Below, piece by piece: positions 31,336 to 43,062 of a DNA stretch of 64,000 nt (the first letter of the stretch is position 1; each line of letters begins with the position of its first letter). The notes under the pieces were generated by a model that ran no database searches, had not been told where the DNA came from, and was given only the letters and a program-made list of their open reading frames with translations. Origin of the DNA: Wenjunlia tyrosinilytica (lineage in GTDB: Bacteria; Actinomycetota; Actinomycetes; Streptomycetales; Streptomycetaceae); assembly GCF_014646055.1 (NCBI RefSeq), contig NZ_BMMS01000018.1:62001-126000 (forward strand), read 5' to 3'. The position numbers and the translations under genes are program-made.

Positions 31336-32514
31336 ATGACGACAGTGGTGTTCATCCATGGCACAGGTGTGCGCGAGCTGCGCTACGGCCAGGCGCTGGA
31401 CCGCATCCGCCGGGGGCTGTCGCGTCACCGTCCCGACCTGACCGTGAGCCCCTGCTACTGGGGCGGCACCCTGGGCTCGCGCCTCGGAGCCGACGGTCGG
31501 TCGGTCCCCGGCCTCGGCCCCGCCGACGACTTCAGCGAGCAGGACCGGGAACGGGCCCGCTGGGCGATGCTGTACGACCGGCCCCTGTACGAGCTGGAAC
31601 TGCTCGAGGTCGCCGGGGGACGCCCGCCACGGATGACTCCGGGAGGCCGGGAGCCGGGAGCGGAGCTCGCCGAGCGGCTCGAGGCGTGCGCCGAACAGCC
31701 CGAGGTGCGTGGGGCGTTCGAGGCAGCGGGACTGGACGAGGGCCCCTCCCCGGCCGTGGCCGCCGTCGCCGGCTCGCGCGCCTGCCGAGCCGCCCTGGCC
31801 CGCCTGGAGGAGGACACCGCGGCCGTCCGCGGCATGCTCGCCCGGGCCGTCACCGCCCAGGCGCTGGCCCAGGTCGACGGCGGCCCGGGAACCGTCGACC
31901 CCGGCGCACGCGACGCCGTCGTGGGCGCGCTGCTCGACGCCCTCGGCGGCGACGAGTACGGAATCGGCGAGGTCGGGGCGAAGGTCCTGCGGACCGCGGG
32001 AGCGCTCGCCCTCCAGTTCGGCGGCGACCGCCTTGTGGTGAACCGGCGCGGCGACTGGACCGAGGAGCGGCATCCCCTGGCGGGGGACGTGATGGCGTAT
32101 CTCGCCCGCGGGGGAGGGATACGCGACTTCATCGCGGAGCGGGTCCGGGCCGTCGAGGGCCCCGTCGCGCTGCTCGCCCACAGCCTCGGCGGGGTCGCCG
32201 CCGTGGACCTCCTCGTCCAACAGGAGCTGCCCCAGGTGGAGTTGCTGGTGACGGTCGGGTCGCAGGCGCCCTTCCTCTACGAGTTGGACGCACTGCCGTG
32301 CCTGCCGTTCCCGACCGCCCTGCCCGCCCGCTTCCCCCGCTGGGTCAATGTCTTCGACCGCCGCGACCTCCTGTCGTACCTGGCGCGGCCGGTCTTCCCC
32401 GGGAGGGCGGAAGATGTCGAAGTCGACAACGGACAGCCTGTCACCACCGCCCACAGTGGGTACTGGAACAACGAGAGTATCTACCGGTTGCTCGCGAGCG
32501 AGGTGCGAGCGTGA
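31336..32514 (+). CDS. Alpha/beta-hydrolase-like protein, first gene of the VMAP operon
   Basis: A 392-aa protein with an N-terminal strand and oxyanion loop FIHGTG (His8) and a nucleophile elbow AHSLGG (Ser283). A candidate catalytic His is near the C-terminus. The middle about 200 residues are an unusual Ala/Glu/Arg-rich helical insertion. No signal peptide is seen, so it acts in the cytoplasm. The ATG at 31336 has GAGGGGGG upstream. It is 28 bp from the VMAP gene. It could be a lipase or esterase effector of the neighbouring conflict system, but this is inference. Confidence 0.75.
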   Translation: MTTVVFIHGTGVRELRYGQALDRIRRGLSRHRPDLTVSPCYWGGTLGSRLGADGRSVPGLGPADDFSEQDRERARWAMLYDRPLYELELLEVAGGRPPRMTPGGREPGAELAERLEACAEQPEVRGAFEAAGLDEGPSPAVAAVAGSRACRAALARLEEDTAAVRGMLARAVTAQALAQVDGGPGTVDPGARDAVVGALLDALGGDEYGIGEVGAKVLRTAGALALQFGGDRLVVNRRGDWTEERHPLAGDVMAYLARGGGIRDFIAERVRAVEGPVALLAHSLGGVAAVDLLVQQELPQVELLVTVGSQAPFLYELDALPCLPFPTALPARFPRWVNVFDRRDLLSYLARPVFPGRAEDVEVDNGQPVTTAHSGYWNNESIYRLLASEVRA

Positions 32515-32542
32515 CCGCCATGATGGGCGTTCGGGGGGCAAC

Positions 32543-34027
32543 GTGCCTGGTCAGGACGGGCGATCGTTTCGGCTCAGGATTTTGATGAAGACGGCTCGCG
32601 TGCTCGAGGCATGCCCGACGGTCAAGGACGCGACCAGCAGGCAGCTGTGGCTCGAAATGGTGGAAGAGGAGTTGGGACAGCGGCTCGACCTACGCAATCA
32701 GACCCGGCTGCGCCCCCTGGTGGTGGAGCTGACCAGGACATGTGCCGCGATACCCGCCGGGCTGGACGTGCTCGTCGATGTGCTCGCGGCGCTGGAGGGC
32801 GAGTCGTCGAGGGAGGTCAGCGGGCTGCGCTCGCTGATGGACGAGTGGAGCGCGGTGGAGTTCTTCGCCGACGCCGACTGGACGCTGCTGCAGCAGACCC
32901 TGAACGAGGTCACCGTGCGCGGCCACGTGGCGCTCGGCGAGGCGGCGACGGAGGGGCGCGTCCGCATACCGCCGCGCTGCACCGACGCCTGGACCTGCTT
33001 CGCCTTCCTGACGGGCGTCAACAGCCCCTCCGGCACGCTGCCGCCCAGCATGGTCTTCCTCGAACTGCTGGCGGAGCAGATCGAGGACCCGGTCGGCGTG
33101 CGCGTGCTGCGGCAGTGGAACCAGCGGTGGGCGCACCGCTGGAACCTCACCGCGGAACTGGAGAACACCCGTTGGCGCCGCTCCCCGGAGAAGCCGGAGC
33201 CCGCCTCGACGGCGAGGCTGATCATCCAGCTCGACCCCGACGGTGTGGACCCCGACTCCTACACGCTGTCGTACTGGCAGGAGTGGGACGCCGCCGGCCG
33301 GCACTGCGAACGGGGCGAGGACAGGCTGGTGAAGCGGGAGGACCTGGAACTCGTGGTGGAGGAACTGGTCGAGCGGATGGAGGACTCATGGGCCGAGCGG
33401 TCGAGTCCCGTGTGGCTGGAGTTCTTCCTTCCGTGGGAGCTTCTCAACGCCCCGGTGGAATGGTGGGCGAAGGAAACGCGTTCTGACTTACCGTCGCCCC
33501 TGATCGGCGACTACCCGATCATCGTGCGCAGTCTGGAGAGGCTGCGTATGCGCAAGTGGCACCGTCCCTGGCGGCAGCGGTGGCAGCATCTGACCAACCG
33601 CCCGGCCGACAGCCGCGCACACTGGAGCAACCCCGTCGGTGAGGATCATGTGCAGCGCCTGGAGATGGAATTGAAGGCGGACGACCACCTGGTCTCCCTG
33701 GTGCTCAGCGAGCCCCCGCTGCCCGACGGCGGCACGGGCCAGCAGGAGGTGCTGGTGGCCCTGCGAGCAGGCCTGCCGGTGATCATATGGAACCGCGAGG
33801 ACTGCTCCACGGAGGCCTTCCGGGCCGTGGTCGCGGAACTTTTGGCCGATGCGGGTCTGGCCAACCTCCCGGGCCATGCACGACAGTTGAAGCTCGACGC
33901 TTCGCGTCTGGATCCCGTGCACCCAGCCAGTCGCGCCGCTAGGAACCTGACAGTTCTCTGGGACGACCCAGGACGGCAACCGGGAGGCCGCGACGCCTCC
34001 GGGTTCTTGGGAGAGGGGTGGCGTTGA
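32543..34027 (+). CDS. VMAP protein: effector-associated domain plus VMAP-C
   Basis: A 494-aa protein of the vWA-MoxR-associated type. Residues about 9-98 form an effector-associated domain (EAD2-like). The first 15 core residues, LRILMKTARVLEACP, align without gaps with LRALTAFVEALLELP in the caspase at 41863-43062. The C-terminal half has VMAP-C hallmarks such as LEFFLPWELLNAPVEWW, a YPIIVRSLERLR segment and LRAGLPVIIW. I chose GTG 32543 over ATG 32585 because the later start would cut into the aligned EAD. Codon 316 is TTA. The stop overlaps the MoxR start (TGATG). Confidence 0.8.
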   Translation: MPGQDGRSFRLRILMKTARVLEACPTVKDATSRQLWLEMVEEELGQRLDLRNQTRLRPLVVELTRTCAAIPAGLDVLVDVLAALEGESSREVSGLRSLMDEWSAVEFFADADWTLLQQTLNEVTVRGHVALGEAATEGRVRIPPRCTDAWTCFAFLTGVNSPSGTLPPSMVFLELLAEQIEDPVGVRVLRQWNQRWAHRWNLTAELENTRWRRSPEKPEPASTARLIIQLDPDGVDPDSYTLSYWQEWDAAGRHCERGEDRLVKREDLELVVEELVERMEDSWAERSSPVWLEFFLPWELLNAPVEWWAKETRSDLPSPLIGDYPIIVRSLERLRMRKWHRPWRQRWQHLTNRPADSRAHWSNPVGEDHVQRLEMELKADDHLVSLVLSEPPLPDGGTGQQEVLVALRAGLPVIIWNREDCSTEAFRAVVAELLADAGLANLPGHARQLKLDASRLDPVHPASRAARNLTVLWDDPGRQPGGRDASGFLGEGWR

Positions 34028-35184
34028 TGACGGGCAACGCTACCGGTGACGCCGCACACCAGGAGCGGCATTCGAACGGGGACACCGCGCGGGCCGGACA
34101 GCAGTGGTGGCTGTACCAGGGGACGGGCCTTCCCCTGCCCCGGGATGTGCGCGACGCCAAGTGGCCCGAGCCCCCGCACTGGAGGAACTTCGACGGCGGT
34201 CCCGACCTCCCGCCACCCCCGGACGACCGGGCCGAGGTCGACCGCAGGCTCGGTGAGCAGGCCCTTCCGTTCCGTGTGGACCCGCACGAGGTCTCGATGG
34301 TGAACGCGGCCCTGTATCTGCGCAGACCGCTCCTCGTGACAGGGCGCCCGGGGTCCGGCAAGTCGAGCCTGGCCTTTCGTATAGCCCGCGAACTGCGGCT
34401 GGGCCGCGTGCTCAAGTGGCCGATCACCAGCCGGACAAGGCTTCGTTCGGGTCTGTACGAATTCGACACCGTGGGGAGGGCCCAGGCATCCGGCCAGTAC
34501 TGGGCCAGGGTGGCCGCGATGGGCGGAGTGGCGGCGCTGTCGGAGTCCGCGGAGGAGGACGAGCCGTCCGGAGCCCGGGCGGACCGGCACGACCACGTGG
34601 GCGACTACCTTCACCTGGGTCCGCTGGGGACCGCTCTCCTTCCGCAGAAGCTGCCGAGGGTCCTCCTCATCGACGAGCTGGACAAAAGCGACATAGATCT
34701 GCCGAACGACCTGCTCAACATCTTCGAGGACGGGGAGTTCGCCGTCCCGGAACTCGTTCGGGTGAGGGATCGTACCCCCGAGGTGAACGTCCATTCCGCA
34801 GATCCGAACAGAAGGGTCCAGGTCAGGGATGGAATTGTTCGGTGTCATGCGTTTCCGGTCGTCGTTATTACATCCAATGGCGAAAGGGAGTTTCCGGCTC
34901 CGTTCCTCCGCCGCTGTCTGACACTGGAAATGAGCGATCCCGATGAGGAAGCATTGGCCGCCATGGTGGCAGCGCACTTCCCCTCCGGGCTCGATGAATC
35001 GGCCACGGACCTGATCAGGGCCTTCCTCAGCCGGGGGGAGCGGGTGGGCGGCCTCGCCGCCGACCAGCTGTTGAACGCCGTGTACCTCGCGACCTCGGGC
35101 GGGATCCGCACCGACCACGACGACGAGACCTGGCAGGCCGTACTCGAGGCGATCTGGCACCGGCTGTCACCGGCAGGGCCCTGA
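34027..35184 (+). CDS. MoxR-type AAA+ ATPase
   Basis: A 385-aa AAA+ ATPase. Walker A is GRPGSGKSS and Walker B is VLLIDELDKSD. The sensor-1 asparagine is in VVVITSNGEREFP and an arginine finger follows in APFLRRC. It is the NTP-dependent switch of the vWA-MoxR-VMAP trio. MoxR ATPases work as chaperones or assembly factors with vWA partners. It is coupled to both neighbours by one-base TGATG overlaps, implying fixed stoichiometry. A GTG at 34018 is an alternative start. Confidence 0.9.
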   Translation: MTGNATGDAAHQERHSNGDTARAGQQWWLYQGTGLPLPRDVRDAKWPEPPHWRNFDGGPDLPPPPDDRAEVDRRLGEQALPFRVDPHEVSMVNAALYLRRPLLVTGRPGSGKSSLAFRIARELRLGRVLKWPITSRTRLRSGLYEFDTVGRAQASGQYWARVAAMGGVAALSESAEEDEPSGARADRHDHVGDYLHLGPLGTALLPQKLPRVLLIDELDKSDIDLPNDLLNIFEDGEFAVPELVRVRDRTPEVNVHSADPNRRVQVRDGIVRCHAFPVVVITSNGEREFPAPFLRRCLTLEMSDPDEEALAAMVAAHFPSGLDESATDLIRAFLSRGERVGGLAADQLLNAVYLATSGGIRTDHDDETWQAVLEAIWHRLSPAGP

Positions 35185-38100
35185 TGGCCCCGGAAGGAAG
35201 GCGCCCCCCGATCGCGCCCGCGGACGAAGTGGCCGGGTCGCCTCACCGCGGCATGAACCGGGGTGCGCGTCGCCACGCCTCCGGCCGGAGGACATCGGCC
35301 GATCCCCTGTGGTACGAGGTGGCGGACGCCCTCTGGCTCGCCGAGCGGATCGCCGCGGCCGACAGCCCCCGGCCTGCCGAACCGCACTCCGACGAGCCGG
35401 AGGAGGGCGGCAGTTCCGACGTCCCGGACGATCCCGGCCCCGCCGCCGACGAGCCGTCCTGGCCGTCGGCGGGGAGCGAAGCCTCCGACGCCCCGACGCC
35501 CGGCCACCTGCCACCGGACGTACCCGGCCGGCCGCCACCGGAGACGACCGCGACGGCGCCCTCGACCGCCACCGGCCGCGTTCGGCCCGGCGGAAGGAGT
35601 GGAAGCCCCCCTCCCCCGGGCCGGTTACGCGGTCCCGGAGGGCGGCGCGGCCATCGCGGCCTGGCCGTCGACCCGCTGATCCGCGCCGTGCGTCCGTTGC
35701 GCCAGACCGTGGAGTCCGTTCACGAGTTCAGGCTCGACGAGGAGGCCACGGCGGAATGCATGGCGGCCGACCCCGCCATGTGGACCCCGGTGTGCGAACC
35801 GGAGGAAGAACTCCGCTCCGAGGTCGTCCTCGTCGTCGACGCCGGCCCCACGATGCTGATCTGGCAGGAGACCGTCGCGCAATTGGACGAACTCCTCGTG
35901 AGGTCCGGAAGCTTCAGGTCCACCCGGGTGCGGCGGCTGCGCACGGACTCCTCCATTCCCGAGGACGTGACCCTGCTGTCGTCGTCCGTGCCGGGGGTGG
36001 GATACGACCCCGGGGAACTCATCGATCCCACCGGCCGCCGTATCGTCCTCGTGCTCACGGACGGCTTGGCGCCCGCCTGGGACTCCCAGGCCGTGCTGCC
36101 ACTGCTGCAACGGTGGGGGAGGGTGATGCCCGTCGCCGTCGTGCACCTCCTCCCGTCCACCCTGTGGCACCGCTCGGGGCTGGACCCCCAACGACTCGGC
36201 CTGCGGGCCACTTCGCCGTGGCAACCCAACTCCCGGCTCGACTGGGTCTCCAGGGGCATACCGCGGGATCTGCTCGACCCGGTGGCCCAGCCGGTCCCCG
36301 ACGGCGCTGTCCCCGTCCCCGTGCTGGAGCTCGACCCGCGCTGGCTGCGGGCATGGGTCGGCCTGCTCGTCGGCGGCCGCGCGGAGTGGACGACCATGAC
36401 GGGTGTGCTGGCCGGGCCGTGGAAGGGCCCCAGGGACGCCGCTCGGGCGGCGCCGGTGCCGGAGGCGACGGCGCTGGAGAAGGTCCTGTCCTTCCGCGCG
36501 CAGGCGACCCCGGAGGCGTTCATGCTTGCCGCCCGGCTCGCCGCGGCGCCCCTGCGGCTGCCCGTCATCAAGAGGGTGCAGGAGCGGCTCGTCCCGGCTT
36601 CGCGGGCCTCGCACGTGAGCGAGTTGCTCATGAGTCCCCTGGTGTCCGCCTCTTCCGGCGAGGGAGCGCCCGGCTTCGCGTTCGACTTCGCCCCCGGGGT
36701 GCGCGAGGAACTGCTGGCGACCGCTCGCCGTGCCGAGACCGTCCGGGTGCTCAAGACCGTGGCCGACGCCATGGAGGAGTGCGGCGGGGGATACTCCCCC
36801 GACCTGGTGGAGGCGCTGACCACACCGGGGACCGCTTCGGCCCCTCGGGTCACGCAGAGCAGCGCGCCCCTGCTGCGGATCGAGCAGCAAGTGATGCAGG
36901 CGATGTCGGGGCAGCACCTCAGTCGGGCCCGGCAGCTCTCGGAACTTCTCGGGGATCCGGCCGCTCCCGGCGGCTCTGCACCATCCGGGGTGTCTTCCGG
37001 CGACACGGCTCCAGACCGTGACCCGGACCGCAGATCACCTGAGAAAGTGAGCCGGCCCCACGGCTCGTCGGGCGCGCAGTTCGCCGCGGACCGGCAACCG
37101 TCCACGAGCCTCCGCGCGACCGGTCAGGAGGCCCAAACGAACACTGGAGGGACGCAAGTGACTCAGACCACCGCGGAGCCGACCGCGGAGCGGCGGTACT
37201 CAACCGGGCGGCCGGCGGTGTGGGGCAACATCCCGCAACGCAACCCCAATTTCACCGGCCGCGAAGAGCTCCTGGCTGCCCTGCGAGAGCGGCTGGAGGC
37301 AGGCACCACCGCGGTCCTGCCCGAGGCCCTGCACGGCATGGGCGGTGTAGGCAAGTCCCAGTTGGCAGTTGAATACGTATACCGCCATCAAGCCGATTAC
37401 GACGTCATTTGGTGGATTCCCTCCGAGCGCAAGGCGCAGGCCGCCCAGGCGCTGGTGGAGCTGGCCCAGCAGATGCGCCTGCCGGTGAAGGGCGAGGCCA
37501 ACCAGGCGGTGCCCGCGCTTCGGGAGGCGCTTCGCCGGGGAGAGCCCTACGAGCGATGGCTCCTTGTCTTCGACAACGCCGAAAGTCCGGACACTGTGCG
37601 GGAGTTCTTCCCACAGGGAGGATCCGGGTCGATTCTCGTGACATCACGCAATCTGCAGTGGGGCAGCGTGGCACGCCCCCTCGAAGTCGACGTGTTCGCG
37701 CGCGAGGAGAGCAAGTCACTGCTGCGCCGCCGTGATCCCGGCCTCACCGAGGAGGAGTCGGAGCGGCTCGCCGTCGCGCTGGGAGACCTGCCCCTCGCCG
37801 TGGAGCAGGCGGCAGCCTGGCGCGCGGAGACCGGGATGCCCGCGGACGAATACCTGCGGCTGTTCGAGCAGAAGCGCACCGAACTGCTCGAGGTCTCCCC
37901 GCCGTTGGACTACCAGCTGCCCGTCGCCGCGGCCTGGAACGTCTCGCTCGACCAGATCGAGCTGCGCAACCCGGCGGCGCTGCAGCTCCTCCAGGTCGCC
38001 TCGTTCCTCGCTCCCGAGCCCGTGGCGCGGTCCCTGTTCTCCAGCGCCCGCAACGCCTCCATCGCGCCCGAGCTGGACGCGGCCCTGAGGGATCCGCTGC

Positions 38101-39689
38101 GACTCGCCCGAGCCATCAGGGAGATCAACCGCTACTCCTTGGCGCGCATCGACCACCGGAAGAACTCCATTCAGATGCACCGGCTGGTCCAGGCGGTGCT
38201 CCTGAGCCGGATGACCGAGGAGGAGCGCGACACGATGCTCCGCGGAGCCCGCGCGCTCATCGCCTCCGGCGACCCGAACAACCCCGAGTCGGCCGAGGCC
38301 TGGCCCCGCTACGCCGAGCTGTACCCCCACGTGGTCGCCTCCAAGGCGGAGGAGTCCGACGACCCCTGGGTCCGCGAGCTTGTCATGAACACCGCCAAGT
38401 ACTTGTACCGGTGGGGCGAGCACGAAGAGGCCAGGGCGTTCTCCCAGCGCGCCTACGAGACCTGGAAGCGGGAGCGGGGCGAGGAGGACGAGTCCACACT
38501 CGTCATGGCCCAGTGGCTGGGCTTCATGCTCTTCGCCGTCGGCCGCTACAGGGAGGCGGCCGAGCTCAACGCGCACACGCTGAGCATCTACGAGGAGACC
38601 GTCCCCGAGGACCGCGAGGACGCCCTCGAGGCCATCGGAGCCGTGGCCATCGACCACCGGGTCCAGGGCGACTTCGCCCGCGCCCTGGAGCTGTCGGAGA
38701 CCGTCTACACCCGGTCGATGCACGCCTTCGGTGAGGACGACCCCACGACGCTGAACGCGGCGCACAACCTCGCCGTGAGTCTGCGTCTGGCCGGAGAGTT
38801 CGCGCGCGCCCGCGACCTCGACGACGAGACATGGCAGCGCAAGGTCCAGGTCTTCGGCGAGGACCACGAGCTGAGCCTGATCACCCGTGCCGGCCTCACC
38901 ATCGACCGGCGTGAGCTGGGCGACTACGTGGAGGCGCGCAAGGAGCAGGAGGACAGCGTCCAGAAGTACCGCCAGCTCATGGGCGACGGACACCCCGGCA
39001 CCCTGCGGGCGGAGCGCCACCTGTCGGTCGCGTTGCGCAAGGCGGGAGCACACGAGCAGGCACGCGAGCTGTCCGACGCGGTGACGAGGAAGTTCACGGC
39101 CCGCTACGGCGTCGAGCACCCCGACACCACCGCTGCTGCCCTGAACCACTCGGTGGACCTGCGGCAGACCGGCGACCTGGCGGCGGCGAAGGAGCGGGGC
39201 CAGGAACTCCTCGAGCGCTACACCGGAACCCTGGGGGAAGAGCATCCGCACACCGTCTCCACCGCGGTCAACCTGGCCATCACGCTGCGGCTGATGGGCG
39301 AGCTCGAAGCCGCGCTGCGCATGGACGAGAAGGCCCTCGAGACCTTCCGCCTGCGTTTGTCGGACGACCACCCCTCGACTCTGGTGTGCCGCACCAACCT
39401 GGCCAGCGACCTCTACGCGCTGGGTGAGTTCGACCGAGCCCTGGAGCTCGACACCGACACCCTGGAGCGGTCCACCAGGGTGCTGGGTGAGTCCCACCCC
39501 TCGACCCTCGCCATCGCGCTCAACCGTGCCCTGGACCTGCGGGCGCTGCGCCACACGCAGGAGGCCGAGGAACTGCACGCAAGGGCTCTGGCCGGGTTCC
39601 AGGGGGTGCTGGGCAGCGACCACCCGGCCACCATGGCGGCCTCGGGGTGGATGAGGGCCGACTGCGACATCGACCCGATGCCGCTGTGA
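35184..39689 (+). CDS. SAV_2336/vWA-like + NB-ARC NTPase + TPR fusion protein (FxSxx-COOH system TPR type)
   Basis: A 1501-aa signalling protein. Residues 1-190 are disordered and Pro/Arg-rich. From about 210 a vWA-like fold appears (EVVLVVDAGPTM, a degenerate MIDAS) as in the SAV_2336 family. From about 660 the second half is a STAND NTPase: RNPNFTGREELL, Walker A GMGGVGKS (718-725) and Walker B WLLVFDNAE. It is followed by about ten kinesin-light-chain-like TPR repeats (HPxTL...NLAxxL...GE) to the C-terminus. This second half matches the FxSxx-COOH system TPR family. Codon 148 is TTA. A strong internal start lies at codon 659. Confidence 0.88.
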   Translation: MAPEGRRPPIAPADEVAGSPHRGMNRGARRHASGRRTSADPLWYEVADALWLAERIAAADSPRPAEPHSDEPEEGGSSDVPDDPGPAADEPSWPSAGSEASDAPTPGHLPPDVPGRPPPETTATAPSTATGRVRPGGRSGSPPPPGRLRGPGGRRGHRGLAVDPLIRAVRPLRQTVESVHEFRLDEEATAECMAADPAMWTPVCEPEEELRSEVVLVVDAGPTMLIWQETVAQLDELLVRSGSFRSTRVRRLRTDSSIPEDVTLLSSSVPGVGYDPGELIDPTGRRIVLVLTDGLAPAWDSQAVLPLLQRWGRVMPVAVVHLLPSTLWHRSGLDPQRLGLRATSPWQPNSRLDWVSRGIPRDLLDPVAQPVPDGAVPVPVLELDPRWLRAWVGLLVGGRAEWTTMTGVLAGPWKGPRDAARAAPVPEATALEKVLSFRAQATPEAFMLAARLAAAPLRLPVIKRVQERLVPASRASHVSELLMSPLVSASSGEGAPGFAFDFAPGVREELLATARRAETVRVLKTVADAMEECGGGYSPDLVEALTTPGTASAPRVTQSSAPLLRIEQQVMQAMSGQHLSRARQLSELLGDPAAPGGSAPSGVSSGDTAPDRDPDRRSPEKVSRPHGSSGAQFAADRQPSTSLRATGQEAQTNTGGTQVTQTTAEPTAERRYSTGRPAVWGNIPQRNPNFTGREELLAALRERLEAGTTAVLPEALHGMGGVGKSQLAVEYVYRHQADYDVIWWIPSERKAQAAQALVELAQQMRLPVKGEANQAVPALREALRRGEPYERWLLVFDNAESPDTVREFFPQGGSGSILVTSRNLQWGSVARPLEVDVFAREESKSLLRRRDPGLTEEESERLAVALGDLPLAVEQAAAWRAETGMPADEYLRLFEQKRTELLEVSPPLDYQLPVAAAWNVSLDQIELRNPAALQLLQVASFLAPEPVARSLFSSARNASIAPELDAALRDPLRLARAIREINRYSLARIDHRKNSIQMHRLVQAVLLSRMTEEERDTMLRGARALIASGDPNNPESAEAWPRYAELYPHVVASKAEESDDPWVRELVMNTAKYLYRWGEHEEARAFSQRAYETWKRERGEEDESTLVMAQWLGFMLFAVGRYREAAELNAHTLSIYEETVPEDREDALEAIGAVAIDHRVQGDFARALELSETVYTRSMHAFGEDDPTTLNAAHNLAVSLRLAGEFARARDLDDETWQRKVQVFGEDHELSLITRAGLTIDRRELGDYVEARKEQEDSVQKYRQLMGDGHPGTLRAERHLSVALRKAGAHEQARELSDAVTRKFTARYGVEHPDTTAAALNHSVDLRQTGDLAAAKERGQELLERYTGTLGEEHPHTVSTAVNLAITLRLMGELEAALRMDEKALETFRLRLSDDHPSTLVCRTNLASDLYALGEFDRALELDTDTLERSTRVLGESHPSTLAIALNRALDLRALRHTQEAEELHARALAGFQGVLGSDHPATMAASGWMRADCDIDPMPL
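37146..37160 (+). promoter_or_regulatory. Internal ribosome binding site and GTG start within the fusion gene
   Basis: GGAGGG at 37146-37151 is followed six nt later by an in-frame GTG (codon 659), exactly at the border between the vWA half and the NB-ARC half. It would yield an 843-aa NB-ARC/TPR protein from the same mRNA, free of the TTA codon at position 148. Confidence 0.6.
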
Positions 39690-39710: not shown

Positions 39711-41567
39711 TCAACCGGCGTCCGGCCGCAGGGCAGGCCCGAGCCACAGGGCCAGCTCCCGTACCGAAGGGGTCTTTCCGGCCTCACTGAGGATCGCCTG
39801 CCGCACCGCTCGGACGAGTTCCGGGCGGTGCAGCAGTATGTGGTCGCTGTCACCCGTCCCGTGCAGGCACATGGCCAGCCCCGCCAGGTGCGGCGGCGAG
39901 TCGGGACGCTCCACCAAAGCGGCCTCGTAGCGTTCGCCCGCCTCTTCCAGGTCGCCGGACACGTAGTCGAGGTCCGCCGGAACGGCGCCGGACACCTGCT
40001 GCCCGGGGTTCGGATCGGCACGCAGACGGCGGAATTCGACGGGGTCGACCAGCTGGAGCCTTGCCAGCACCGCGCGAGTGTCGAGCCACTGCGCACGCGG
40101 GTCGGATACGACACGGGATTGTTCAACGCTTGTGAGCGGCAAGGGCACCGCCTGGCCCCGGGACCAGGCTCGAGCCAGCTCGGCCACGAGCTCGCGGTCG
40201 GGTCGAAGATGCCACAGGCGCCAGCTGATCCGGTGGTCCACAGCCGCCGCCTCGGCGGCCGACAGCACGTTGGCGGGCACCGGTTCGGTCTGCCAGGAGG
40301 CCAGCCGTTGCGACAAGGTGTCCACGAGATGCCGGCCGTAGTCCGTGAGTTCGGGGCGTTCCTGGAGAATCCGCAGGGCGGAGAGCGTCTGACGCCTCCA
40401 CAGGGCGAACTCGTATTGAGCGAGGTCGGCCTCGGGTCCGCTCAGCCGCGTTCGGCGCTCCCGCCAGAAGCAGGTGACTCCGGAGAAGGCGTAGACGCCC
40501 TGCAGGAGTCCCTTGGCGGGGCGGGGATCGTCCCGCCAAGGGGCGTACAACGGCTCCGGCCCGGCGTCGCCGTCGCAGAGGTCGACCAGCCTCTGGAGGC
40601 CGTTGAGCTTGATGTGCTGGAACTCGTGGATCAGGGTCACCGCCAACTCGGACGCGGTGCCCGGCTGGGAGGCGAGGGCCGAGCCGAATGCGTCGGCTCC
40701 GGAGGCACTGTAGACGCGGAAACGTTCCCCCTGATACACGGGAACGATCTCCTTCAGGCCGCGGGCGAGAGTCTCAGCGGCCGCGGGCTGTTCCTCGTTC
40801 AGGAGCGACCACGCCTCGTCGAACAGCTCACGCCACCTGTCCACCGCGGCGGGAGGACACCTTTGCGCCAACGTGGGCACCTGGAGCGCCCGATACGGAT
40901 CCAGGTCGTCGAACGCAATGTCGATGGACCGTGCGCGCGCCTGTGCCCTGAGCCTGCGCACGCTCTGCCAGCCCGGCGCGTCGTCGCGCGGATTCGGCGG
41001 CAGTTCGACGACATGAGCGTCCACCCGGACCGTGGTCGGCCCGGCGGCGCGGCGCGCCCTGGCGATTCCCCAGAGAGTCTTGCCGCGAGGTGGCATCGAC
41101 GCCCCGCCGAGCGAGGGAAGCACCGCCAGTTCGCCGTACACGGGGATGCTCATATGGAAATCCAGCCCCGCCAGTGTCGCGGCGGCGGCGGCCAGGGCGT
41201 GCAGGTAGCCGACCTCTGCCCACAGTGGCGCCGGCGTCGCGGGAGCGGCACCGTGAAGTCGGCGCAGGACATGCGCGCACCATCTCCCTACCTGCGGCGT
41301 GAGCAGCAGTGATTCCACAGCCTCGGGGGCCTGCTGATGCGACCGCACGAGCAGCGTCCAGGCGTGGTCCACGGAAGGCAGCCGCCCGGTGGCGCCCGGG
41401 CGCTCGCGGGCACTGCGCAGCAGGGCATAGAGCATGAGCATGCGATGGCTGCGCTCGGCGGCCAGCAGCGCGTCGATTGCCTCCGCGCCGGCATCGCCTG
41501 CCGCGAAAGCGGTGAAATGGTCGACGATCAGGCGGTGCCGCTGGAACCCAGGGTCGGAGTCCACCAC
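39711..41567 (-). CDS. HExxH-motif peptide-modifying enzyme (aKG-HExxH-type peptide beta-hydroxylase family)
   Basis: A 618-aa protein. LIHEFQHIKL gives HEFQH at 314-318, the metal-binding HExxH of a family found next to FxSxx-COOH peptides. It is thought to hydroxylate the precursor with 2-oxoglutarate, and not to act as a protease. The rest is mostly helical, with a C-terminal TPR-like part. The GTG at 41567 starts 6 nt after the stop of the FxsA-like peptide gene without its own clear ribosome binding site, so translation probably depends on that gene. It converges with the fusion gene, 21 bp away. Confidence 0.85.
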   Translation of the reverse strand: MVDSDPGFQRHRLIVDHFTAFAAGDAGAEAIDALLAAERSHRMLMLYALLRSARERPGATGRLPSVDHAWTLLVRSHQQAPEAVESLLLTPQVGRWCAHVLRRLHGAAPATPAPLWAEVGYLHALAAAAATLAGLDFHMSIPVYGELAVLPSLGGASMPPRGKTLWGIARARRAAGPTTVRVDAHVVELPPNPRDDAPGWQSVRRLRAQARARSIDIAFDDLDPYRALQVPTLAQRCPPAAVDRWRELFDEAWSLLNEEQPAAAETLARGLKEIVPVYQGERFRVYSASGADAFGSALASQPGTASELAVTLIHEFQHIKLNGLQRLVDLCDGDAGPEPLYAPWRDDPRPAKGLLQGVYAFSGVTCFWRERRTRLSGPEADLAQYEFALWRRQTLSALRILQERPELTDYGRHLVDTLSQRLASWQTEPVPANVLSAAEAAAVDHRISWRLWHLRPDRELVAELARAWSRGQAVPLPLTSVEQSRVVSDPRAQWLDTRAVLARLQLVDPVEFRRLRADPNPGQQVSGAVPADLDYVSGDLEEAGERYEAALVERPDSPPHLAGLAMCLHGTGDSDHILLHRPELVRAVRQAILSEAGKTPSVRELALWLGPALRPDAG

Positions 41568-41573
41568 GCCGGG

Positions 41574-41738
41574 CTAGGAATTCGAGCCGGCGACGCTGTT
41601 CTGTGGGTCGGCTATCTGCTGGAGAAGACGGGCCATGGCAGGCGCGAGAATCCGGTCGTCCTGCATGTCCAGAACTTCAATGCTGACCCCTGTCAGATCG
41701 ACGAGATCGGACTCTATTGCCGCCTGGGGCAGATCCAT
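41574..41738 (-). CDS. FxsA-like precursor peptide with a degenerate C-terminus
   Basis: A 54-aa peptide starting MDLPQ at ATG 41738 with a very strong AAGGAGGAG upstream. The middle, DLVDLTGVSIEVLD, and the QQIADPQNSVAG segment resemble FxsA (FXSXX-COOH) peptides. It ends AGSNS: Ser stands at position -3, but the required Phe at -5 is Ala, and by alignment to family tails the Phe is replaced and the last two residues are missing. It lies between caspase and HExxH genes, so it is the likely substrate of the latter. Confidence 0.82.
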   Translation of the reverse strand: MDLPQAAIESDLVDLTGVSIEVLDMQDDRILAPAMARLLQQIADPQNSVAGSNS

Positions 41739-41862
41739 CGTGCCGACTCCTCCTTCTGCGGCCCGAGTCGCCATCGCGCCGCTCGTTCCATGATGTGCCA
41801 ACTCCCCAAGCTGGGGAAGACCGAGTCCAGGCCACGAACCACGGGCGGACGAAGGGTGGCGG

Positions 41863-43062
41863 TCACCTTTCCGCATGGTTCATCAACTCCGCGGCGGCAG
41901 CGTCCACTTGCTCAATGGCAGCCGAGCCGTTCGCAAAGAATCGGACGGATTCCACCAGTTCCTCCAGGGCTCCTGGGTACCGCAGACAGGTGCGAACGAT
42001 GTCCAGCGTGTCCGTGCGGGCGGCCGGGTGCCGGCGGACCGAGGCGTAGACCTCGAGGCGCAGCAGTCCCAACACCTGTTCACGGGCGGCCGGTTCGGTC
42101 ATGGCGGGAAGCTCGAGCAGTGCCTCCACGAACGCCGTCAGCGCACGGAGCGGCGGCGCGGAGGTGGCGGCGGGCCCGCCCGCGGCTCGCTGCCTCGGGT
42201 CGGACGGCGGCTCCCGCAGCACCTGTCCCACATCCCCGGCGGGGCTCCGGTGCCAGAAGTATGTGGGGGTCTGCCGTGTCCGCCCCTGTTCCCGCAAGGC
42301 GGTGAAGCGGCGGTTGAGGGTGGTGGTCAGCTCGTGCGGGTCCGGGAGCCACGACCCTCCTGCGGGGGTGGGGGCAGGGGTCTGGAGGAGGTCGAGCACC
42401 TCGCGGCTGAACAGGCCGCCGCGCGGGCTGCCCCGGTTGATCGCCGACTGGCCGGGGCCCGCGGCGAAGAGGACGAACTGCTCGCGGCCCGGGACGGACA
42501 GGCCCGCCGCCGGGGTCTCCAACGGCAGGGTGCGGTCGAGCGACTGAGGGTCGGCGAAGCGCTGGCACGCGTCGATCAGCCACATCTGCCGCTGGAAGGA
42601 GGGGATGAGGTCGGTGCGGAACGAGGCGAGGGTCGGGTCGACCGCCAGATTGGTCCGGTCCTCGTCCGAGGCGTCGGCGTGGAACAGCCGTTTGTCGCCA
42701 TGGATGTCGACGGCGCCGTGTCCCATCCACACCACGCACAGCAAGTCGCCCCGCTCGGCCGTAAGTTGACGGAAGAGTACTTCGTGGACGTGTTGACGCC
42801 GCGCGGGCGTCACCGCGAGGGACAGGCGTGACTGGTCGAGCAGATGGGTGTTGGCCGGCAGCGGGGAGGCCAGCAGCCTGATCCGCTCCGGCGGCACGCC
42901 GCGGTCGAGGAACCACCGGGTGAAGGCGAGGGCGTCCCTCACCGGCCCGTCGAGACTCCAGGCGGAACCGGCCGCGTAGACCTCGGCGGCCACGACGACC
43001 ACGCTGGTGCGCGCCGGATCGGTGTTTCGCCACTCGGAGGCGGCCGGTGAGTCGGGGGACAC
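41863..43062 (-). CDS. Caspase-like protease (C14-type) with effector-associated domain
   Basis: A 399-aa protein. Residues about 18-285 form a caspase/metacaspase-like domain: catalytic His115 in VWMGHG and Cys166 in LIDACQ, both in the expected places after hydrophobic strands. Residues about 303-395 are an EAD2-like helical domain homologous to that of the VMAP protein (shared RTC, then P, then L..LV pattern). The GTG at 43062 has AAGGA upstream. It heads the operon caspase, FxsA-like peptide, HExxH enzyme. It is the probable killing or processing effector of the system. Confidence 0.87.
   Translation of the reverse strand: MSPDSPAASEWRNTDPARTSVVVVAAEVYAAGSAWSLDGPVRDALAFTRWFLDRGVPPERIRLLASPLPANTHLLDQSRLSLAVTPARRQHVHEVLFRQLTAERGDLLCVVWMGHGAVDIHGDKRLFHADASDEDRTNLAVDPTLASFRTDLIPSFQRQMWLIDACQRFADPQSLDRTLPLETPAAGLSVPGREQFVLFAAGPGQSAINRGSPRGGLFSREVLDLLQTPAPTPAGGSWLPDPHELTTTLNRRFTALREQGRTRQTPTYFWHRSPAGDVGQVLREPPSDPRQRAAGGPAATSAPPLRALTAFVEALLELPAMTEPAAREQVLGLLRLEVYASVRRHPAARTDTLDIVRTCLRYPGALEELVESVRFFANGSAAIEQVDAAAAELMNHAER

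What the first reader, a model, noticed from the sequence alone, without database searches (positions are those of the whole stretch)
41574..41738. FxsA-like peptide that has lost the FxSxx C-terminus but keeps its HExxH partner
The 54-aa peptide has the MDLPQ start, DLVDLTGVS and ADPQNSVAG segments of FxsA peptides, a very strong ribosome binding site and an operon with a HExxH enzyme. It ends AGSNS, where the family defines FxSxx. No radical-SAM FxsB is in the window. Either the modified residue lies elsewhere (the HExxH enzyme may target Asp or another residue in the conserved body), or this is a new sub-type without the cross-link. The family tail was recalled from memory.
Basis: partly seen in the sequence, partly recalled or inferred. 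Interest (0 to 1): 0.8.

Follow-up and report, generated by a model that had tools for sequence, protein, structure and literature searches.

The report
FxsA-like peptide without cross-linking enzyme
A tiny bacterial peptide sits beside an iron-dependent enzyme that probably oxidises it, inside an immunity-like gene cluster; it belongs to a large branch of such peptides that have neither a cross-linking enzyme beside them nor a cross-linkable tail.

Summary
The 54-aa ORF, its strong ribosome-binding site, the HExxH neighbour and the AGSNS end are real. The peptide did not uniquely lose its tail. Of 78 related loci, 77 showed no FxsB nearby; a homologous peptide was found at 73 of them, and none of these (nor the window's) ends FxSxx. 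The one locus with FxsB has a peptide ending SGFDSII. At 38 of 50 FxsB(H) loci an FxS-tailed peptide was found. So the tail follows FxsB, not HExxH. Kaur et al. 2020 already described FxsB-less systems of this layout ("RxD", "acidic"); 42 of 75 peptides here have RxD/E ends. The window peptide lacks RxD too: its short tail resembles eight others. Around it lies a VMAP-MoxR-NB-ARC/TPR conflict system with a caspase-EAD2 gene. By sequence and predicted fold the enzyme is an alpha-ketoglutarate-HExxH oxygenase (SjiH Z 30.9, ChlH Z 23.1), not the peptidase proposed in 2020. Best reading: it docks on the conserved body and oxidises the variable tail without a cyclophane. The oxidised residue is unknown.

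The parts
41574..41738 (-). precursor-like peptide, 54 aa, body IESDLVDLTGVSIEVL..., short tail AGSNS
   Evidence: 57.2 bits to a profile of 74 relatives that excludes it
41747..41757 (-). ribosome-binding site AGAAGGAGGAG, 8 bases before the peptide ATG
   Evidence: sequence
39711..41567 (-). standalone aKG-HExxH oxygenase, 618 aa (HEFQH at 314-318), C-terminal helical, TPR-like extension from about residue 450
   Evidence: TIGR04267 164.7 bits (cut-off 40); one search matches 22nu/22ob and 8s5f; predicted fold; TPR-like part (weak)
41863..43062 (-). caspase-like protease with C-terminal EAD2; GHG and DACQ motifs present
   Evidence: EAD2 7.6e-22; caspase_w_EACC1 27.5 bits (below its cut-off 140); PADLOC caspase 2.9e-6; motifs kept in 5 relatives (DSCQ in one)
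35184..39689 (+). SAV_2336 N-terminal domain + NB-ARC + TPR (FxSxx_TPR) protein, convergent with the enzyme gene
   Evidence: NF040586 911.8 bits, NF041121 385.8 bits; NB-ARC and TPR
34018..35184 (+). MoxR-like AAA ATPase
   Evidence: AAA_5 25.6 bits (cut-off 22); the name MoxR is inferred from its place beside VMAP
32348..34027 (+). VMAP protein: EAD2 + VMAP-M0 + VMAP-C
   Evidence: 9.6e-17, 1.6e-26, 3e-48

Best explanation
The peptide is the precursor of an FxsB-independent branch of FxsA-like peptides, part of a VMAP-MoxR-NB-ARC/TPR conflict system. The conserved N-terminal body acts as a leader that docks on the standalone HExxH enzyme. That enzyme, an Fe(II)/alpha-ketoglutarate oxygenase, oxidises the variable C-terminal tail (QNSVAGSNS), most likely by beta-hydroxylating Asn53, without any cyclophane. 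The oxidised peptide is then a signal or effector for the NB-ARC/TPR protein, while the caspase-EAD2 protein is recruited by the EAD2 of VMAP. Shown: genes, homology, neighbourhood, no FxsB found, tail pattern, enzyme family and predicted fold. Inferred: oxidation, its site, leader role, EAD2 pairing, signalling role.
For: Peptide and enzyme are coupled (6-base gap). A peptide was found at 74 of 78 related loci, 73 of them ending within 250 bases of the matched enzyme region. HExxH plus W344, R345, D347, R349 are invariant in 89 of 89 standalone enzyme rows and 11 of 11 FxsBH rows. The model matches SjiH (Z 30.9) and ChlH (Z 23.1); the next row has Z 7.2. ChlH is an aKG-dependent hydroxylase (as reported in PMC12636437, passages). 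F-x-S tails track FxsB. The own genome and 3 of 7 relatives' genomes show no FxsB over cut-off. The body's start is better conserved than the tail: mean pairwise identity 0.43 for residues 7-24 against 0.22 for 46-54. A fused SAV_2336N+NB-ARC/TPR gene was found at 68 of 78 loci and VMAP at 68 of 78.
Against: No chemistry was tested. The target residue is not conserved: Asn at position 53 in only 29 of 63 filled rows, and in only two of the nine short tails (window, L058). Residues 25-45 of the body are hardly better conserved than the tail (0.23 against 0.22). A test of Asn/Gln as the HExxH target failed: three FxsBH loci in which no HExxH motif was found still have FNS, FNS and FQS tails. ChlH is reported to depend on a preinstalled cyclophane (PMC12636437), which this peptide could not have from FxsB.
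Confidence: 0.6

Rival explanations
1. The enzyme does alpha-oxidation at the tail glycine (Gly51) and splits the backbone, leaving a C-terminal amide or releasing the last residues, as PflC/PosC do at Ala (and partly at Gly).
For: Gly51 is the most conserved tail position (51 of 71 filled rows; by eye all nine short tails). PosC splits the backbone at small residues (PMC12636437 passages). It would explain the 'released C-terminal peptide' expected by Kaur et al..
Against: Not tested; 20 of 71 filled rows lack this Gly. PflC/PosC act at a different motif (ARMD).
Confidence: 0.2
2. The HExxH protein is a zinc peptidase that cuts the precursor (the 2020 proposal).
For: Proposed for this system by Kaur et al.; PflC shows proteolysis without its leader.
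Against: The fold and sequence matches are to aKG oxygenase domains. Leukotriene A4 hydrolase, a zincin peptidase, appears only at Z about 5.
Confidence: 0.08
3. The tail is a decayed remnant after loss of FxsB or of an RxD end, and the peptide is no longer modified.
For: The closest enzymes by tree path (L043, L033, L034) go with SGYNPQRID tails, longer than AGSNS.
Against: The genes examined here are open and their domains complete. Short tails occur at 8 other loci and need 3 changes on the tree (at least 2 forced by well-supported branches). The body scores 44 bits on its own.
Confidence: 0.07
4. An FxsB elsewhere in the genome acts on the peptide in trans.
For: 4 of 7 relatives' genomes hold FxsB at places other than the peptide locus.
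Against: The own draft genome has none over cut-off, and the tail has no aromatic residue to cross-link.
Confidence: 0.02

Closest known systems
RxD-type peptide system of VMAP ternary conflict systems (Kaur et al. 2020, PMC7159879; passages read)
   Same: Small peptide plus HExxH protein, no radical SAM, AP-ATPase-TPR fused in the partner protein, VMAP and MoxR
   Different: The window peptide has no RxD end. The HExxH protein is read here as an oxygenase, not a peptidase. I did not see the paper's source data, so short tails may be in it.
FxSxx-COOH cyclophane peptides with FxsB (TIGR04268/TIGR04269)
   Same: Homologous body; the L033 peptide scores 21.5 bits (below cut-off 28) and the L103 peptide 48.6 bits to TIGR04268
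   Different: No FxSxx, no model match for the window peptide, no FxsB found
aKG-HExxH peptide hydroxylase domains ChlH and SjiH (PDB 8s5f, 22ob)
   Same: Sequence, HExxH and WRxDxR motif, predicted fold
   Different: Standalone with a C-terminal extension instead of fused to radical SAM; Phe361 here, His in 11 of 11 FxsBH rows, Phe also in ChlH
PflC/PosC, PesO, BipH/BpmH (RiPP HExxH oxygenases)
   Same: aKG-HExxH proteins outside FxsB fusions (passages)
   Different: Different precursors and clusters; reported targets Gln, Pro and Phe

Membership tests
FxSxx-COOH peptide (TIGR04268) | F-x-S-x-x C-terminus | tested here: not met
   Ends AGSNS; no model match at E up to 10
FxSxx-COOH peptide (TIGR04268) | radical SAM/SPASM partner FxsB | tested here: not met
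   None over cut-off in the draft genome; no FxsB match among window ORFs of 80 aa or more
FxSxx-COOH peptide (TIGR04268) | homologous precursor body | tested here: met
   One profile covers the window peptide and the FxSxx peptide of L103
aKG-HExxH peptide beta-hydroxylase (TIGR04267) | profile score over cut-off and HExxH site | tested here: met
   164.7 bits, cut-off 40; HEFQH 314-318
aKG-HExxH peptide beta-hydroxylase (TIGR04267) | fold of the solved members | tested here: met
   Predicted model, mean pLDDT 93.1; Z 30.9 to 22ob, 23.1 to 8s5f
aKG-HExxH peptide beta-hydroxylase (TIGR04267) | Fe(II)/aKG-dependent hydroxylation of the partner peptide | not testable with these tools
   Needs biochemistry
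RxD-type peptide system (Kaur et al. 2020) | RxD motif at the peptide C-terminus | tested here: not met
   Tail AGSNS; 42 of 75 peptides match R-x-D/E with up to 4 residues after it
RxD-type peptide system (Kaur et al. 2020) | AP-ATPase-TPR fused to the vWA component | tested here: inconclusive
   SAV_2336N + NB-ARC + TPR in one protein; no Pfam vWA match, so its vWA identity rests on the paper's description
VMAP ternary conflict system | VMAP protein, and an EAD shared by VMAP and an adjacent effector gene | tested here: met
   VMAP-C, VMAP-M0 and EAD2 in one protein, EAD2 also in the caspase-like protein
VMAP ternary conflict system | MoxR AAA ATPase with a vWA protein | tested here: inconclusive
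   AAA_5 over cut-off at 34018-35184, no MoxR-specific model over cut-off, no vWA match

The most novel reading that the evidence does not exclude
Standalone aKG-HExxH enzymes oxidise cyclophane-free, fast-changing tails of FxsA-like peptides, and the oxidised tail is the ligand that licenses a bacterial NB-ARC/TPR plus caspase-EAD2 response: an oxygen- and alpha-ketoglutarate-gated peptide alarm. Short tails such as AGSNS would be a further tail type beside FxSxx and RxD.
Probability: 0.2. Interest if true: 0.75.

Novelty: new variant of a known kind. Interest (0 to 1): 0.42.

Why it matters
It separates two chemistries that are often fused in one protein: FxsB cross-linking and HExxH oxidation. 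ChlH is reported to depend on a cyclophane made first; here no FxsB was found to make one, so a simple two-gene co-expression tests whether HExxH oxygenases act on linear peptides of this family. It also argues against the 2020 reading of the HExxH protein as a peptidase in these immunity-like clusters, and gives the peptide a chemically definable form that could be tested as the signal.

Tried and rejected
Sequencing error or a fresh stop codon: rejected, because neither other frame nor the codons after the stop give an FxSxx or RxD end, and 8 other loci have similar short ends.

Asp14 of the body as obligatory target: weakened by Arg/Arg/Cys at that place in three loci with intact enzymes.

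Asn/Gln at the middle place of F-x-S as the HExxH target: tested with the three FxsBH loci in which no HExxH motif was found (L187-L189). All three keep Asn or Gln, so the idea gained no support.

Limits of the F-x-S contrast: at the FxsB(H) loci peptides were picked partly by an F-x-S-type pattern, so the 12 of 50 without one are 'not found', not 'different tail'; the FxsB-less peptides were picked by a body pattern and profile. Many FxsBH loci are close relatives (L115, L117, L119-L122 are near-copies), so counts are not independent.

Fold search: zincin peptidases reach only Z about 5; a missing family there is no proof of absence.

Family model TIGR04268 in the own genome: 0 matches, but it rang in none of the 14 control genomes either, so on its own it shows nothing.

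Paper searches. Three papers of that library hold 'FxSxx'; two are fungal papers by title, the third is Kaur et al. 2020. Haft and Basu 2011 was not read. Morishita et al. 2024 is not held and is known here only through passages of PMC12636437. The four papers used (PMC7159879, PMC12636437, PMC13060819, PMC12707348) were read as passages only.

Dropped before counting: second peptide-enzyme pairs at paired loci were left out of the 75 peptides and of the tree. L036 was dropped from the alignment used for the structure, which held 36 sequences. L177's doubtful match was counted as not found. The tree is FastTree with local support only and was rooted on the FxsBH rows by choice.

Full report
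What is there. The minus strand at 41574-41738 encodes MDLPQAAIESDLVDLTGVSIEVLDMQDDRILAPAMARLLQQIADPQNSVAGSNS. AGAAGGAGGAG ends 8 bases before its ATG, and the enzyme's GTG starts 6 bases after its stop. The window lies in a draft genome of 8.49 Mb in 172 contigs. A profile of 74 relatives that excludes the window peptide gives it 57.2 bits, against at most 10.0 for 2000 shuffles, and nothing else among 869 window ORFs is significant.

The enzyme. P0002 (39711-41567) scores 164.7 bits to TIGR04267 (cut-off 40) and is the only match to that family in the genome. It matches two solved aKG-HExxH proteins by sequence (22nu, E 9.9e-38; ChlH 8s5f, E 3e-10). The predicted model (mean pLDDT 93.1, pTM 0.92) aligns to SjiH-Ni 22ob with Z 30.9 over 402 residues and to 8s5f with Z 23.1 over 316; the next row is Z 7.2. 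Foldseek agrees: E 1.0e-21 for 22ob, 1.6e-9 for the best of four 8s5f chains, nothing else at or below 0.001. H314, E315, H318, W344, R345, D347 and R349 are invariant in all 89 standalone and 11 FxsBH rows. Position 361 is Phe in 86 of 89 standalone rows, His in 11 of 11 FxsBH rows, Tyr in L103 and Phe in ChlH. It is a possible specificity position, with no mechanism shown.

Relatives. A peptide was found at 74 of 78 loci (none at L047, L051, L105, L106), giving 75 peptides with the window's. One of the 75 ends FxSxx: L103 (SGFDSII). That is also the only one of 78 loci with an FxsB match in the DNA held, up to 10 kb each side. So 73 relatives plus the window's, 74 peptides, come from loci without a nearby FxsB, and none ends FxSxx. 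42 of 75 have R-x-D/E at or near the end. Nine, the window's included, have a short tail: AGSNS, GGYST, GGSEPS (twice), GGSEGS, AGSNGS, GGTSGS, GGSSGS (twice). The short-tail grouping is mine, made by eye.

Contrast. At 20 FxsB(H) loci, 17 peptides end F-x-S-x-x, one has F-x-S followed by an extension (L112), and none was found at L113 and L128. At 30 further FxsB(H) loci, 20 have an F-x-S-tailed peptide and 10 have none found, counting the doubtful L177 as none. Together 38 of 50, against 0 of 74 without FxsB nearby. Of 11 more FxsB regions (some are the same places as above), seven hold a peptide with F-x-S in its tail (L140-L144, L148, L149), L139 has F-T-N, and none was found in L145-L147. 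L140 (the same place as L103), L141, L142 and L143 have separately encoded FxsB and HExxH; in L141 and L142 the peptide lies about 4 to 5 kb from FxsB. So the tail follows FxsB, not HExxH. The two sets were not searched in quite the same way, and many FxsBH loci are near-copies (see Tried and rejected).

Genome-wide FxsB. The window's genome has none over cut-off (30 bits against 370). Of seven genomes holding relatives, four have FxsB over cut-off (those of L103, L033, L058, L043) and three do not (L035, L045, L049). The standalone system therefore occurs where no FxsB was found; these are shotgun assemblies and may be incomplete.

Tree. On a FastTree of 100 enzyme rows the 11 FxsBH rows lie on one side of a branch with support 100 and the standalone rows on the other, with L103 near the base of the latter. 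The window enzyme is nearest by path to L043, L033 and L034, whose peptides end SGYNPQRID. Short tails need 3 changes, at least 2 forced by well-supported branches.

Neighbourhood. Upstream in the operon is a caspase-like protein with EAD2 that keeps GHG and DACQ. The caspase call rests on weak profile scores and these motifs. Convergent to the enzyme lie SAV_2336N-NB-ARC-TPR, a MoxR-like AAA protein and VMAP with EAD2. Among the 78 loci the fused SAV_2336N-NB-ARC-TPR gene was found at 68, VMAP at 68, MoxR at 47, EAD2 at 33 and the caspase at 5; single-sequence queries and contig ends make these lower bounds. The EAD2 slot is modular: trypsin (L060), alpha/beta-hydrolase (L033, L043), caspase (window and five loci).

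How it most likely works. Kaur et al. 2020 (PMC7159879; passages) described this kind of cluster: a peptide, a 'metallopeptidase', and, for RxD and acidic peptides, an AP-ATPase-TPR fused to the vWA component, with radical SAM noted for the FxSxx type. They propose that EAD2 recruits signalling peptidases and nucleotide-using domains. Later work showed HExxH proteins of this family to be aKG oxygenases acting on Asp, His, Phe, Gln and Pro (PMC12636437 and PMC13060819, passages). Putting the two together, the most likely step here is oxidation of the tail by the standalone enzyme, guided by the conserved body, with no cyclophane. The residue cannot be named from sequence. Asn53 (+16 Da) is my first guess and Gly51 (backbone cleavage, as in PflC/PosC) the second. 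Asp14 is weakened as an obligatory site. That the product signals to the NB-ARC/TPR protein is inference from the published proposal.

Verdict. What this work adds is the association of tail type with FxsB across these loci, the short-tail variant, and the reading of the 2020 'peptidase' as an FxsB-independent oxygenase.

Noticed in passing
L038, L044, L060, L061, L064, L066, L071, L079, L086, L100: Two peptide-HExxH pairs lie head to head around an EAD2 gene; one peptide has a tail of the GGYNPQRDE kind, the other mostly of the SVSDFNPAERFD kind.
   Followed up: partly
window 41863-43062 and L033, L036, L043, L047, L060, L103: The gene upstream of the peptide (or nearby) swaps its effector domain (caspase, trypsin, alpha/beta-hydrolase, unassigned) while keeping EAD2.
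   Followed up: partly
window 39711-41567, residue 361: Phe in 86 of 89 standalone enzymes and in ChlH, His in 11 of 11 FxsBH rows (and in standalone L009), Tyr in L036 and in L103, the standalone enzyme that has an FxsB neighbour.
   Followed up: partly
L187, L188, L189: FxsBH proteins in which no HExxH motif was found still have FNS/FQS-tailed peptides.
   Followed up: no
L074, L081: Peptides with glycine-rich tails GGGGSPYFAAGCD unlike the FxSxx or RxD kinds.
   Followed up: no
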